IMG/VR virus record: IMGVR_UViG_3300021957_000159
Coordinates: 1 to 32,951 of that record
DNA from: a virus
Length of the DNA: 32,951 bases
Strand: one strand, 5' to 3'
Below, in pieces: positions 8,415-13,942 of the stretch (position 1 is the stretch's first letter; every line of letters starts with the position of its first letter). The notes beneath the pieces were generated by a model. The model saw only the letters and a program-made list of their open reading frames with translations, searched no databases and was not told the DNA's origin. A program made the translations under genes and the position numbers.

Positions 8415-11400
8415 TTATTTAAGACTATCTAATTTAGTCATTAAGCCTGCTAGACCATCATGTGACATTACAGAACCTTCTTTAACTACGTCAGCACCAT
8501 TATATCCCATACGATCATTTTGACCTGCTATAACTGGGATAGTAGTTTGACCTGTTGATTTCTGCTTGTTAAGTCCACCAGAGATTACTTTAGTCATAAA
8601 GTCGATGTCTTGTTCAAATGAAGTTTCAGTGCCGATTTTACCTGCATCGTTAGCCCATTCGTCAAGTTTTTCTTCTTTCATATCTCCACATGCTTCATCA
8701 ACATCTTTCTCAGAATCGTCTTTCTTACCTTTCTTTTTATCTTGGTATGCTTTAAGACCTGCGGGTATTTTACCTTCTTCTAAGTCATCATCTTCTGCTA
8801 CTGTAAACTCTCTTTGATCATCAGTTTGTGTTTCAGTGATTTCTTCGTTCTCACCGTCGTTTACTGAGTCCTTAGGAGCATCCTCTGCGCCTTCTTTAGT
8901 TAATAGTCTCTCATCATCATGTTGTGTTAACGGCTGAGTAGGGACTTCTGAAGTTTCTGCGCCTACTTCTGCTAGTAAGTCTAAAGTTCTAAGATTTTCT
9001 TCTAAAGAATGAGGTTTGTTGCCGTCTTCTTTATCTCTCTTACCGAACTTGCCACGTGAATCATCACGGCGATCTTTCATTGATTGTTTCTTATCAGATT
9101 CTTTGCCGTCTTTCATACCGAGTTGTTCGTCTTCTTTGTCATCATAGCCTTGCTTTTCATCTAACTGAGCAAGTTCATCTAACTGTGAAAGAGTTTCTTC
9201 TAATGATTTTTCTCTATGCTCTGAATCTCTCTTACCAAATTTACCATAAGAGTCATCTCTACGTGCTTTGTCTGATTGTTTGTGATCTGATTCTTTTCCA
9301 GTTCTCATGCCTAATGACTCATCTTCTTTGTCATCATAGCCTTGTCCTTCTTTAGAGATTTCTCTGTGTTCTTCGTCACGTTTGCCGAACTTGCCATATG
9401 AATCATCTCTACGGTCTTTCATAGATTGATGCTTACCTGACTCTTTACCAGTTCTCATGCCTAATGACTCATCTTCTTTGTCATCATAGCCTTGATCTTC
9501 TTCCATGTGATGCTTATCTTTGTAGTCATCATATTCTAAATCTTTAGTGACATCTTCTCCATCTCTGCCTGAATGTCTACGACCGTCATAATGTGCATCA
9601 TGTGCAACTTCTTTACCTGCTCTTTCAGCATGGTCGTCCATTTCTGCATCTGATTCTTCTTTCATAGAATCTCCACAACCTTCTTCCATGTTGTGTTGGT
9701 CGCCACATGATTCACATGCCGCATCATCTACTTGTACATCAATGTCAGTACCAGGTGCTTCTACTTCATCTTCATAGTCACCGTCTACGTCTACAATACC
9801 CATTAACTTGAGCATGTCATCGTGTGAACCATTAGGCTCAACTTCTACTTCAGGACTACCATAGAATGATACGTCTCCTACTTCAGGTTGTTCTATATCT
9901 ACAACTTCTGCATCTCCGTACTGCCCTAAGCCTACGTCTTTAACAAACTTGATTAACTTGTCTGCTTCTGCATCTGTTGCATTAACACTAACTCTGTCTG
10001 GTTGATTTTCTTCACCTGATGTAATAGACATTGTATAGCCTTCATCAAGTTTTTCTTTAGTTGACTCTTTACCTTCAACTAAATGTGATTGTAATGCTTT
10101 ATCAAAAGACTCAAATGTCCATGCATCTTCTTCTAATTCTGCGGCTTCTGATGTCTTTGTATATTCTTTATCAGAGCCGGGTACTGAGAACTTGTCTCCT
10201 TTACCTACTTTTGCCATAGCGCCTGAGAATGCGTTGCCTTCGTCCATTTCATCTTCATCGATGCCTTTCTTAGCAACTGTTTCTGCGTCCCAATCATACT
10301 TGTCATATGTACCGTCGTCTCCTGCTTCTTCAATGGATTCATTATTATCTGCGGCTTGTTGTGCTTTATGACCTAGATATGCTCCTGATACAGTACCTGC
10401 TATGCTAGGTAAAAAGCCTGCTTTTGCACCTAATACTCCACCTGCTAATGCTCCGGCTACGCCTTCTTCGACTTCGGCTTCGTCCATTGCACCGTATGAT
10501 GCCATAGTATCTACAACTTCATCTGCTGGTTCTTCAAAGATGCCGTCGCCTGTCATTTTATCACCTGCGATTCCACCTAATGCCGCACCTGCTGCCTTAC
10601 CTATAGTTGCTCCTGGGACACCACCGATTGAACCACCGATTGCTGTGCCTGCCATGCCGCCTAATTTAGATCCTGCAATTGCACCACCGACTCCACCTAA
10701 TACGCCTTCTTCCATACCTGCGATTGGTTCATTTTTGATTCCCATGCCACATGCTTCGTCAAGGCCATGTTTGTAACCTTCGTGGTATGCTCTCGCACCT
10801 TCAGAACCTGCATCATGTGGACATGCATAAGATCCTTTACATAAACCATGAGATTTACCCATGTGCTTCGCGGCTTTCAGAATGTGTTCTGCGCCTTCTT
10901 TTAAGTTTGTTTTAGTATTTTTAATCATAATAGTAAGTTCTTCTTTGTTGCACTTAGGGTGCAGTTGTTGTATTTGTGATGTAGACAAACCTTCGTTACA
11001 CATAGATTTCACTTTTGAAATACTAGGTAGTTTACTAGATTTGCTTACTTTACCTTTTGGTTTTTCTGTTACAAGTTGAGATGTATCAGCATCATTGGCT
11101 GCCAAAGCGGCGTTCGCCGCGGCATTACCTTTCTCATCATTTGATGAGTTGTGTGATCCGTCATCTGGCCCGTATTGAGCGGCCATGTTTGCGCCTTCTT
11201 TCATCTTTGATGAACGTTGTGTATCATATGAAAGTGGAGATTGTCCACCGTATGAACCTGACCCATCACTTTCTCTCATGTTACCACCTGATATAGGTGA
11301 TGTTAAATCTAAAGATGATTCTGGTGGAGTATCAGTTTCATCAAACTTACCTAATGTTTTGGCTAAGTTTGCTTGTTTTTCTGTTTTTGCTGGAAAGTCG

Positions 11401-12335
11401 TCTTTGTTTGCTAATACTTTTTTTGCGAATGCTTTAGTAGTCATTCCATGACTTTTTGCTTTTTTAGTAAATGCACCTTTATTTTTAGTTGCACCAGCAA
11501 TCCAATCTTTTGCTTCTTTGATTGTTTCTTCCTTGTCATCATCCATTACTTTGTCTAAGACTTTTTTTCCACCATATAGTAATGCTACTGCGGCTAATAT
11601 AGGAAGACCATATTGTGATGCTGTTCTTTTAACTGTATCGAATGCGGCGTCACCAATTGCATTTCTAATCATGCCACCGGCATTATCGCCTAATTGTGCA
11701 ATTTTTGCAGACCCTGCATCAAACATATGCTTACCTGAGTCAATCATAGCATTGGCTGCACCAAATGTTGCGTTAACTCCGTCAACTGCGGCTACTGCGC
11801 CATCTTTAACATTGCCTGCGAATTCTCTACCTTGTTCTGTACCTGCTAGTCCGGCGCCTGCAGTAGTTTTGATTGGATTCCTACCAGCATATCTACCCAT
11901 TGCACTCATCATTTGAGCACCGCGTCTTGCTAACCAAGGTGCAGCCACTCTAGCACCAGTCATAAGTGCTGGGCCTAATAGGGCTAAAGGAGCAAGTTCG
12001 TCAAGTTGCTCGTCTTCTTGCATTTCTTGACCGATAGTTAATTCGCCCTTGTCAATTGCTTGTGACATTTGATTAGCAAGTCCTGAATTAGATACAGAAC
12101 CGATTGGTTCGCCATCTTTATGAATTTCTTGTGCACCAGGCTTTGCTGGTTCTAATGATAGTTCTTCAAAGACATTCTTTAATGAGGGAAGTTTTAATTC
12201 ATTTGAGACTGGCTCAACAATTTCAGTCGATTCAGTCAACATGTTTGCTGGTCTTTTAATTTCTTTTTCGACAACAGGTTTCTTTTCATCACCTTTCATG
12301 TTGTCAAGTTGTGTTAAAATGTCTTTAAAATCCAT
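8415..12335 (-). CDS. 1306-residue glycine-zipper, acidic-repeat virion protein (putative prohead-internal protein)
   Basis: Start ATG 12335 (MDFKDILTQLDNMKG) is chosen because AAGGA lies seven bases upstream; the longer frame from 12389 runs back into the previous gene. Order of parts: hydrophobic stretches at residues about 111-135 and 241-255; a lysine-rich DWIAGATKNKGAF segment near 275; a helix-turn-helix-like stretch near 441-475; a Cys-His stretch (LCKGSYACPHD) near 497-532; two glycine zippers with GxxxG spacing at 542-599 and 623-662; a Cys-rich bit (CESCGD); three acidic repeats at 948-1101; an acidic, lysine-rich tail. Glycine zippers are known to pack membrane helices. Several (L/I)xE-A/G/S/V sites match the T4 prohead protease rule. 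I do not recognise the family; an internal or ejected head protein is an inference. Confidence 0.75.
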   Translation of the reverse strand: MDFKDILTQLDNMKGDEKKPVVEKEIKRPANMLTESTEIVEPVSNELKLPSLKNVFEELSLEPAKPGAQEIHKDGEPIGSVSNSGLANQMSQAIDKGELTIGQEMQEDEQLDELAPLALLGPALMTGARVAAPWLARRGAQMMSAMGRYAGRNPIKTTAGAGLAGTEQGREFAGNVKDGAVAAVDGVNATFGAANAMIDSGKHMFDAGSAKIAQLGDNAGGMIRNAIGDAAFDTVKRTASQYGLPILAAVALLYGGKKVLDKVMDDDKEETIKEAKDWIAGATKNKGAFTKKAKSHGMTTKAFAKKVLANKDDFPAKTEKQANLAKTLGKFDETDTPPESSLDLTSPISGGNMRESDGSGSYGGQSPLSYDTQRSSKMKEGANMAAQYGPDDGSHNSSNDEKGNAAANAALAANDADTSQLVTEKPKGKVSKSSKLPSISKVKSMCNEGLSTSQIQQLHPKCNKEELTIMIKNTKTNLKEGAEHILKAAKHMGKSHGLCKGSYACPHDAGSEGARAYHEGYKHGLDEACGMGIKNEPIAGMEEGVLGGVGGAIAGSKLGGMAGTAIGGSIGGVPGATIGKAAGAALGGIAGDKMTGDGIFEEPADEVVDTMASYGAMDEAEVEEGVAGALAGGVLGAKAGFLPSIAGTVSGAYLGHKAQQAADNNESIEEAGDDGTYDKYDWDAETVAKKGIDEDEMDEGNAFSGAMAKVGKGDKFSVPGSDKEYTKTSEAAELEEDAWTFESFDKALQSHLVEGKESTKEKLDEGYTMSITSGEENQPDRVSVNATDAEADKLIKFVKDVGLGQYGDAEVVDIEQPEVGDVSFYGSPEVEVEPNGSHDDMLKLMGIVDVDGDYEDEVEAPGTDIDVQVDDAACESCGDQHNMEEGCGDSMKEESDAEMDDHAERAGKEVAHDAHYDGRRHSGRDGEDVTKDLEYDDYKDKHHMEEDQGYDDKEDESLGMRTGKESGKHQSMKDRRDDSYGKFGKRDEEHREISKEGQGYDDKEDESLGMRTGKESDHKQSDKARRDDSYGKFGKRDSEHREKSLEETLSQLDELAQLDEKQGYDDKEDEQLGMKDGKESDKKQSMKDRRDDSRGKFGKRDKEDGNKPHSLEENLRTLDLLAEVGAETSEVPTQPLTQHDDERLLTKEGAEDAPKDSVNDGENEEITETQTDDQREFTVAEDDDLEEGKIPAGLKAYQDKKKGKKDDSEKDVDEACGDMKEEKLDEWANDAGKIGTETSFEQDIDFMTKVISGGLNKQKSTGQTTIPVIAGQNDRMGYNGADVVKEGSVMSHDGLAGLMTKLDSLK
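9033..9494 (-). repeat. Three tandem acidic coding repeats
   Basis: Three copies starting at 9494, 9344 and 9152 (periods of 50 and 64 residues). Each reads QGYDDKEDE, then LGM, then GKES, then a variable KQS-like step, then RRDDS and GKFGKRD. The third copy is the most diverged. The second carries an extra 14-residue helix before the third. Confidence 0.9.
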
Positions 12336-12345
12336 TATGTAATCC

Positions 12346-12972
12346 TTAGTACCCTGCTGATGTTTCAGGTTTAGGTCCTCTTTTAACATTAGTCATTGGA
12401 CTCTTATCACCTTTAATAGTATCATCTGTCCATGGCTTCCAAGGATCAAATGAATCTTTAGTATTCTTTTGGTCAGCAGGTAAACCTACTTTACCTACGT
12501 TCTTGTGTTCTGCGTGGTCATGAATACTCTTTAAATACTTATCACCGTATGCTTCACTGGCTTCTTTTCCATTGTCATTCATTTCTTCATGTTGCAATAA
12601 AGGAGTATCTTCCATTTCATTTTCATAACCAACCATTTCGTTATCTATACTGTCATCGAATGCTGTGTTAACCATTCTTACATAGTTAATGTTATGACCT
12701 AGCAATTGTGCTAGTTGTTGAATCATTGGTTCTGTTACGGGATATGCAAACTGACACTTGAATATGTGTACTTGTTCATTTGAAAGATTAGGGAAACCAT
12801 ATGGTGATTTCATAATCGGTGTAGTTGTTGGGCCCTTGATTTCTTTAGGCTCAAACTTGTTTAAGTTATGTTTAAATAACTCTAAGAAATTTTTGTCGCA
12901 GTCACCAGCAATTTTGATTGTGCAATCATAAGTATGGACTGATTCTGCAATGTAATGTTTTAAACTTTTCAT
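12346..12972 (-). CDS. Putative internal head protein with capsid-targeting N terminus
   Basis: A 208-residue protein from ATG 12972. The start is set by the late promoter at 12995-13002; a longer frame from 13044 would begin upstream of that promoter and inside gp16. The N terminus MKSLKHYIAES matches in spacing the T4 internal protein targeting peptide MKTYQEFIAEA, with the prohead protease cut expected after E10. The middle (residues 15-105) looks like a folded alpha/beta domain with DCTIKIAGDC and a QLAQLLGHNINYVRM helix; the end is charged, with WKPWTDD and a basic tail. It precedes the 1306-residue gene by 10 bases, so both are probably made together and packed together. The Shine-Dalgarno is weak (GGGAAC). 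Family unknown. Confidence 0.7.
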   Translation of the reverse strand: MKSLKHYIAESVHTYDCTIKIAGDCDKNFLELFKHNLNKFEPKEIKGPTTTPIMKSPYGFPNLSNEQVHIFKCQFAYPVTEPMIQQLAQLLGHNINYVRMVNTAFDDSIDNEMVGYENEMEDTPLLQHEEMNDNGKEASEAYGDKYLKSIHDHAEHKNVGKVGLPADQKNTKDSFDPWKPWTDDTIKGDKSPMTNVKRGPKPETSAGY

Positions 12973-12994: not shown

Positions 12995-13002
12995 TATTTA
13001 TC
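12995..13002 (-). promoter_or_regulatory. T4-like late promoter overlapping the gp16 stop codon
   Basis: GATAAATA on the minus strand, 22 bases before ATG 12972. Its first two bases are the last two of the TGA stop of the small terminase gene (TGATAAATA). Confidence 0.75.
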
Positions 13003-13483
13003 ATTCCTCTGAGTTTTTTGCAGATAAAACTCGCAGTAATTCATTGCGATCTAAGTTTTGTCCTTCGCCTAGAGGAATATTATCGATCTTTTCATCAGCC
13101 TTTGCTTGACGTTGATCTAGTGTTGCTTTCTTTAATTGTAAGTCGATCATTTTTAATTTTTTATTTAACTTTGCAGTCTTGGCTGTGATCGCATGATTTA
13201 ACATGTTACTAGCAACACTAAAAATATCTCCACTAAAACGTGAATCAACTTGCATACCTAAGTCCATTAAGTCTTGGAAACTAGTTTCTGCTTTCTTACT
13301 TAGTTCATCCATTTCTCTATCAGATGCTTCTAATCCTCTAACTGTAGGTAAAGCAGTTTCAATCTTTTCTAAGTTAGTTAATGCTTCTTTAGTAACTTCT
13401 TGTGCTACGCCTGGAATAGGTTCATTCAGTTCATTTTCATCACTGGATGCTAAGTCAAATAATTCTTCAAGTTTCTTTGTCAT
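13001..13483 (-). CDS. gp16: Small terminase subunit (T4 gp16-like)
   Basis: A 160-residue, almost fully helical protein, close to the 164 residues of T4 gp16. Acidic, flexible N terminus (LEELFDLASSDENE), a central helical pair (residues about 55-125, SFQDLMDLGMQVDSRFSG then LNHAITAKTAKLNKKLKM) that would form the ring-building coiled coil, and a short C-terminal tail that in the family contacts the large subunit. It selects phage DNA and stimulates the packaging motor. Assignment rests on size, helical pattern and position next to head gene 4, not on a sharp motif, so it is moderately sure. The start codon is preceded by ACTAAATA exactly five bases upstream and no ribosome site, suggesting a leaderless late mRNA. 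Confidence 0.65.
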   Translation of the reverse strand: MTKKLEELFDLASSDENELNEPIPGVAQEVTKEALTNLEKIETALPTVRGLEASDREMDELSKKAETSFQDLMDLGMQVDSRFSGDIFSVASNMLNHAITAKTAKLNKKLKMIDLQLKKATLDQRQAKADEKIDNIPLGEGQNLDRNELLRVLSAKNSEE

Positions 13484-13488
13484 ACATC

Positions 13489-13496
13489 TATTTAGT
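13489..13496 (-). promoter_or_regulatory. Late promoter (ACTAAATA) five bases before gp16 ATG
   Basis: ACTAAATA on the minus strand, whose first base is the last base of the gp4 TAA stop. The spacer to ATG 13483 is GATGT. By T4 geometry transcription would start at the A of the ATG. Confidence 0.6.
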
Positions 13497-13942
13497 TACT
13501 TTCCACGTCCATTGTAGAAAAGGTCATCTTCTGTAACTACTCTAAATTTAATACCCTGTGCTTTACAGAATGCTTTTGCTGAATGCCACTTAGCATGATT
13601 GATAGCAATAACTGCTTGTTGTCTTGCATTTTTTACTTTTTCTGTTATAATACTTTCTGCTTTAGGTTTTATTTCTATTAACTCTGCGTTTGTTCTTCCG
13701 TATTTGTCTTGGTATACGATGAAAAAGTCTGGTATATAATTAGTACGTTTGCCTTTAAAAGGATGCATATAAGGAATAACGATTGACTCACTTGCCCATT
13801 TAATTATTTTGTCATTAGTATCACAAAAGATCATAAATGTAAGTTCCCAACCAGATCGATATGTTGGCTTACCTTTGCCTACATACTTGTGTTGATTTTT
13901 TACAGTATAGATACCCTGTGCGTATTTTCTTCTACGAGGCAT
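13496..13942 (-). CDS. gp4: Head completion protein (T4 gp4-like) with nuclease-type fold
   Basis: 148 residues against 150 in T4 gp4. Basic N terminus (MPRRRKYAQGIYTVKN), then RSGWELTFMIFCD, then YIPDFFIVY and ELIEIKPK. E33, P71-D72, E90 and K92 line up as a PD-(D/E)XK nuclease signature of the TnsA-like type. In T4, gp4 (also called gene 50/65) closes the head after DNA filling so that the tail can join; the role of the nuclease motif is not settled. Shine-Dalgarno AAGGG lies six bases before ATG 13942. The gene follows the 125-residue gene by 9 bases and ends next to the gp16 late promoter. Confidence 0.85.
   Translation of the reverse strand: MPRRRKYAQGIYTVKNQHKYVGKGKPTYRSGWELTFMIFCDTNDKIIKWASESIVIPYMHPFKGKRTNYIPDFFIVYQDKYGRTNAELIEIKPKAESIITEKVKNARQQAVIAINHAKWHSAKAFCKAQGIKFRVVTEDDLFYNGRGK

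What the first reader, a model, noticed from the sequence alone, without database searches (positions are those of the whole stretch)
12346..12972. T4-style capsid-targeting peptide on an unknown protein
MKSLKHYIAES has the same length and pattern as the T4 internal protein leader MKTYQEFIAEA, with the cut expected after E10. The upstream late promoter fixes this start. T4 internal proteins are packed in the head and injected to counter host defences, so this 208-residue protein is a candidate injected effector made together with the giant protein.
Basis: partly seen in the sequence, partly recalled or inferred. Interest (0 to 1): 0.65.

Follow-up and report, generated by a model that had tools for sequence, protein, structure and literature searches.

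The report
Jumbo-phage head protein with trimmed leader
The gene encodes a widely conserved virion structural protein of marine jumbo phages that begins with a short tag very like the one T4 uses to load proteins into its growing head and then cut off, so it is probably an ordinary head component rather than an injected anti-defence effector.

Summary
In detail: a 208-aa ORF on the minus strand (12972 to 12346) starts MKSLKHYIAES, 5/11 identical to the T4 IPII/IPIII leader MKTYQEFIAEA. A late-promoter-like GATAAATA lies 23-30 nt upstream. Leader and start are invariant in the 20 homologues aligned (of 46 found in IMG/VR). Chance rate of the pattern is about 1 per 1000 Met positions. The protein is not unknown: it is a distant, syntenic member of a virion structural protein family (PHROG_14802) of PA5oct-, RaK2-, GAP32/CBB- and Atu_ph07-type jumbo phages, whose relatives are found in virions by mass spectrometry (PA5oct gp282; CBB_210, 13 peptides, 60.5% coverage). 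The leader's hydrophobic positions are conserved family-wide; the cleavable [ILV]xE is kept in some lineages and lost in others (RaK2, XaC1, Munch, PA5oct). The predicted cut site (YIAE|S) is spelled like the major capsid protein junction of PA5oct-like phages ([LI]xE in 80/80 contigs); PA5oct and Atu_ph07 encode a T4-gp21-type protease. Prohead targeting and cleavage after E10 are plausible but unproven. The injected-effector reading has no support: the protein is conserved, syntenic, acidic and structural. New member of a known kind.

The parts
12346..12972 (-). CDS of 208 aa, distant member of the PHROG_14802-type virion structural protein family (PA5oct gp282 / CBB_210 / GAP32_204 / Atu_ph07 gp113)
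12943..12972 (-). leader MKSLKHYIAE (residues 1-10), T4-CTS-like; predicted cut after E10 leaving SVHTYD...
   Evidence: sequence; invariance at L4 K5 I8 A9 E10 S11 in 20 aligned homologues; chance rate; cleavage itself inferred
12667..12930 (-). residues 15-102: predicted beta-alpha-beta-beta-alpha-beta (ferredoxin-like / ribosomal-S6-like) domain
   Evidence: AlphaFold2, moderate confidence for this part; Foldseek to S6
12349..12666 (-). residues 103-208: low-confidence, partly helical or disordered tail with conserved FDPWKPW...KSPMTDIKR
12995..13002 (-). GATAAATA late-promoter-like site, 23-30 nt upstream of the start; GATAAATATATTA conserved in the printed homologues
8415..12335 (-). giant low-complexity protein (about 1306 aa from M at 12335, MDFKDILTQLDNM), positional counterpart of PA5oct gp281, probably same transcription unit
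   Evidence: homologous start MDFKNIL in the 92-kb relative
13001..13483 (-). upstream gene, PHROG_16202, homologue of PA5oct gp283
13496..13942 (-). head closure protein (T4 gp4-like, TnsA-N domain), conserved synteny

Best explanation
A late-expressed virion structural protein, probably of the head (inner head or near the portal), of a marine jumbo myovirus. Its N-terminal ten residues act like a T4 capsid-targeting sequence: hydrophobic positions 4, 7 and 8 dock the protein to the prohead core or inner shell during assembly. A T4-gp21-type (S77) protease then probably cuts after Glu10 at the same [LI]-x-E|S motif used to mature the major capsid protein, leaving a 198-residue protein with a ferredoxin-like domain and an acidic tail in the virion. 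Shown: gene, leader, conservation, synteny, late-promoter-like site, virion presence of relatives, matching capsid-protein junctions and the protease in named relatives. Inferred: docking, cleavage, and location in the head.
For: Family: PA5oct gp282 matches colinearly from residue 1 at the exact syntenic position in 11 phage records (E 0.06); reciprocal phmmer finds all four marine orthologues at 1.8e-8 to 3.5e-6 in a small search space; profile chain to Atu_ph07 and five large contigs 1e-15 to 4e-27, to RaK2 3e-19, and to GAP32, Vibrio 2.275 and Phosso; PHROG_14802 'virion structural protein'. Virion presence: PA5oct gp282 annotated ESI-MS/MS; CBB_210, 13 unique peptides and 60.5% coverage (PMC5259590; gene identity). 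Leader. Cut-site match: 80/80 PA5oct-like capsid proteins carry [LI]xE at the junction homologous to T4 gp23, 77/80 with Ser next, mostly RYLAE|S and also RYIAE|S. S77 protease in PA5oct and Atu_ph07. T4 rule that positions 4 and 7 target while 8 and 10 allow processing: PMC9026906. Late promoter.
Against: Glu10 is not conserved in the wider family: D in RaK2/K64-1, A in XaC1, S in Munch, absent in PA5oct, Phosso and one large contig, so cleavage cannot be a general property. The protease and capsid protein of the window's own phage were not found (fragment). The gene sits among tail-tube, head-closure and (in PA5oct) terminase genes, so a neck or tail role is possible. No mature N terminus has been measured. 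P0001 alone hits no PHROG or Pfam family; family membership rests on chained comparisons.
Confidence: 0.6

Rival explanations
1. The leader is a docking helix that places the protein on the core or inner shell but is not removed; the E10 match to the protease site is inherited or incidental.
For: Positions 4, 7 and 8 stay hydrophobic across most of the family while position 10 is E, D, A or S even among close RaK2-type relatives. T4 IPIII with D10 is targeted but not processed (PMC9026906), which is exactly the RaK2/K64-1 state.
Against: In the marine clade E10 and S11 are invariant and the site is spelled like the capsid-protein junction.
Confidence: 0.22
2. Injected internal protein / anti-defence effector in the sense of T4 IPI.
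For: Leader resemblance only; ejection of some head proteins is common in giant phages (PMC5694885).
Against: Deep conservation and fixed synteny in the lineages examined, acidic rather than basic, no match of the family profile anywhere in T4, and leader-bearing shell proteins exist (T4 gp24).
Confidence: 0.05
3. Neck or tail-proximal structural protein whose N-terminal helix resembles a targeting sequence by chance.
For: Genomic neighbours are tail tube, head closure, an uncharacterised protein and (in PA5oct) terminase.
Against: Pattern rarity and its recurrence in lineages that share only about 20-25% identity.
Confidence: 0.13

Closest known systems
PHROG_14802 / PA5oct gp282 / CBB_210 / GAP32_204 / RaK2 ORF047 / 121Q gp557 virion structural protein
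   Same: Colinear homologue from residue 1, same gene order (sheath, tubes, head closure, PHROG_16202, this gene), leader with hydrophobic positions 4, 7 and 8
   Different: Only about 25% identical to PA5oct; the marine clade keeps I-A-E-S, has its own conserved C-terminal tail FDPWKPW...KSPMTDIKR, and is followed by a much larger protein
T4 internal proteins IPII and IPIII (capsid targeting sequence)
   Same: Leader length and pattern MK....[FY]IAE[AS]
   Different: No sequence relationship of the body (no match of the family profile in T4); acidic, not basic; conserved, not variable
T4 gp24 capsid vertex protein leader (MAKINELLRES)
   Same: Ten-residue leader ending [LI]xE|S on a structural head protein that stays in the virion
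   Different: gp24 is an HK97-fold shell protein; this one is predicted ferredoxin-like
N-terminal propeptide junction of PA5oct-like major capsid proteins (T4 gp23-like)
   Same: Junction RYIAE|S / RYLAE|S is the same motif as HYIAE|S here
   Different: Propeptide of roughly 40-50 residues on a different protein; cleavage there is also inferred, by homology to T4 gp23

Membership tests
PHROG_14802-type virion structural protein | sequence homology along the N-terminal domain | tested here: met
   PA5oct gp282 vs marine orthologues 1.8e-8 to 3.5e-6; PA5oct gp282, Atu gp113 and GAP32_204 hit PHROG_14802; P0001 alone does not, so membership is by chained comparison
PHROG_14802-type virion structural protein | position after head closure and PHROG_16202 gene | tested here: met
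   window; PA5oct, GAP32, RaK2, CBB, 121Q
PHROG_14802-type virion structural protein | present in purified virions | not testable with these tools
   met for relatives: PA5oct, CBB_210 (PMC5259590); no virion data for this phage
T4 internal proteins (IPI, IPII, IPIII) | homologous body | tested here: not met
   family profile finds nothing in T4 at E<=1
T4 internal proteins (IPI, IPII, IPIII) | basic protein | tested here: not met
   pI 5.6, mature 5.3, against 8.9-9.5 for whole T4 IPs
T4 internal proteins (IPI, IPII, IPIII) | injected into the host | not testable with these tools
   no experiment available
Proteins with a T4-type capsid targeting sequence | short N-terminal leader with hydrophobic positions 4, 7, 8 and Glu10 | tested here: met
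Proteins with a T4-type capsid targeting sequence | leader suffices for incorporation into the prohead | not testable with these tools
   needs a genetic fusion or deletion
Proteins with a T4-type capsid targeting sequence | cleaved by an S77 prohead protease | tested here: inconclusive
   protease present in PA5oct and Atu_ph07, motif equals capsid-protein junction, but the window phage's protease was not found and Glu10 is lost in several lineages

The most novel reading that the evidence does not exclude
Across jumbo phages one head-protein family keeps the targeting half of a T4-type capsid targeting sequence while repeatedly losing or keeping the cleavage half, a natural series that separates targeting from processing.
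Probability: 0.3. Interest if true: 0.5.

Novelty: new member of a known kind. Interest (0 to 1): 0.36.

Why it matters
It links an orphan marine protein to a conserved but functionally unassigned virion protein of the large RaK2/PA5oct/Atu_ph07 jumbo-phage assemblage, gives a specific prediction (leader docking, cut after E10 at the same motif as the capsid protein), and shows that a T4-like leader alone should not be read as evidence for an injected effector. Existing virion mass spectra of CBB, 121Q and PA5oct could test it at once.

Tried and rejected
Pfam, PHROG and PDB sequence searches with P0001 or the family gave no function. The AlphaFold2 model has low overall confidence (pLDDT 55) and matches only the generic ferredoxin/S6 fold; the viral library gives uncharacterised phage proteins, with a T-even 'Ip7' at rank 23 (E 0.018), too weak to use. 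Looked for other leaders in the available marine contigs: no full match; shorter [IL]TE leaders (MRAKEFITEQ, MKFDDVITEA, MLSNDIITEA) occur on other proteins, but loose patterns are common by chance (7% of internal Met positions) and were not counted as evidence. Searched the 92-kb relative and two others for the protease: none found. Capsid-protein contigs could not be tied to the window's own clade by composition. The RaK2 paper's main text does not name this ORF as MS-detected (its tables are in supplements that were not available).

Full report
Observation. The ORF lies on the minus strand, 12972 to 12346, and encodes 208 residues starting MKSLKHYIAESVHTYD. The mechanical ORF list places the start 24 codons upstream, but that start lies before a late-promoter-like GATAAATA (12995-13002) and inside the preceding gene, and all 21 homologues printed and the 20 aligned are conserved from the M at 12972. 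From the T4 record, IPII and IPIII begin MKTYQEFIAEA: five of eleven residues are identical and three more are conservative. The full pattern is rare: one in 1117 internal Met positions, and that one is this gene's own start in a related contig.

Promoter. GATAAATA occurs ten times in the window against 2.3 expected, 0 of 100 shuffles reaching ten, in nine cases just upstream of a gene start on the same strand. It resembles the T4 late promoter TATAAATA. The site and its extension GATAAATATATTA are conserved in the homologues printed, the last base apart in some. The giant downstream gene starts ten bases after this one, best at M 12335 (MDFKDIL; its 92-kb relative starts MDFKNIL), without a promoter-like site between, so joint transcription is likely.

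Identity. The window is part of a jumbo myovirus related to PA5oct, Atu_ph07 and RaK2. 46 close homologues exist in IMG/VR. Among named phages the only matches of the N-terminal half worth following are eleven PA5oct-group records (E 0.06), colinear from residue 1 and at exactly the syntenic gene, PA5oct gp282, annotated as a structural protein seen by ESI-MS/MS. The reverse search finds the four marine orthologues at 1.8e-8 to 3.5e-6 in a small set. Profiles extend the family to Atu_ph07, whose annotated start is too far downstream (true start probably MKTLQDYLTESKK), to five large contigs, RaK2, GAP32, Vibrio 2.275 and Phosso. PA5oct gp282, Atu gp113 and GAP32_204 belong to PHROG_14802, 'virion structural protein'; the GAP32 protein alone finds 43 phage records. 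The CBB homologue CBB_210 (FDG95_gp210) was found in virions with 13 unique peptides and 60.5% coverage (PMC5259590). So this is a conserved virion structural protein, not an unknown one.

Leader. In T4 IPIII, targeting depends mainly on residues 4 and 7 and processing on residues 8 and 10; an aspartate at 10 blocks processing but not targeting (PMC9026906). In this family positions 4, 7 and 8 (or their shifted equivalents) are nearly always hydrophobic or aromatic, while position 10 is E in the window clade, Atu_ph07, Vibrio 2.275, GAP32/CBB, 121Q and four large contigs (two of the variants with V at P3 and an N-terminal extension), D in RaK2/K64-1, A in XaC1, S in Munch, and absent in PA5oct, Phosso, Hallingskeid and one contig. 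PA5oct and Atu_ph07 encode an S77 (T4 gp21-type) protease. In 80 of 80 PA5oct-like capsid-protein contigs the junction homologous to the T4 gp23 cut is [LI]-x-E, with Ser following in 77, most often RYLAE|S and also RYIAE|S. The window's HYIAE|S is therefore spelled like the maturation site of that phage group. This supports, but does not show, cleavage after E10.

Structure. The model (mean pLDDT 55, better for 15-102) is a beta-alpha-beta-beta-alpha-beta domain with a flexible leader helix and a low-confidence tail; the nearest solved folds are ribosomal protein S6, a generic ferredoxin-like match. The mature protein is acidic (pI 5.3), unlike the basic T4 internal proteins.

Mechanism. [quoted passage not shown] Docking, trimming and location are inferred. 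The effector reading is unlikely: leaders of this kind also occur on T4 shell protein gp24, and this protein is conserved, syntenic and structural, with no detectable relation to the T4 internal proteins.

Status. The finding is a new, divergent member of a known family with a well-supported but untested leader.

Noticed in passing
L052 (PA5oct gp330, C-terminus EELRRLAGIK), L065, L080, L082, L122, L141, L113, L071 just upstream of the capsid gene; N-termini of the gene after the gp282-like gene (PA5oct gp281 MFNINDILRLAGV, L146 MQELKRLQELAGV, L150 ...LLKLAGV): The putative scaffold protein ends in an LAG[IL] motif (seven of eight loci plus PA5oct; one has AAGI), and in PA5oct and two contigs the protein following the gp282-like gene begins with a similar L..LAGV stretch, suggesting a shared docking peptide.
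   Followed up: partly
NC_042013.1 gp113 (L145): The annotated start of Atu_ph07 gp113 appears about 29 residues too far downstream; homology supports an upstream start MKTLQDYLTESKKCYTYHVKF.
   Followed up: yes
window GATAAATA sites (1869, 8328, 12995, 15567, 16319, 20035, 21944, 32828 minus; 23968 plus): GATAAATA is strongly over-represented upstream of structural genes and looks like this clade's late promoter core, one base off the T4 consensus.
   Followed up: partly
8415-12335 minus: The giant protein is repetitive, with [IL]xE 20 times against 12.6 expected by shuffling (43 of 2000 shuffles reach it), a weak hint of multiple protease sites.
   Followed up: partly
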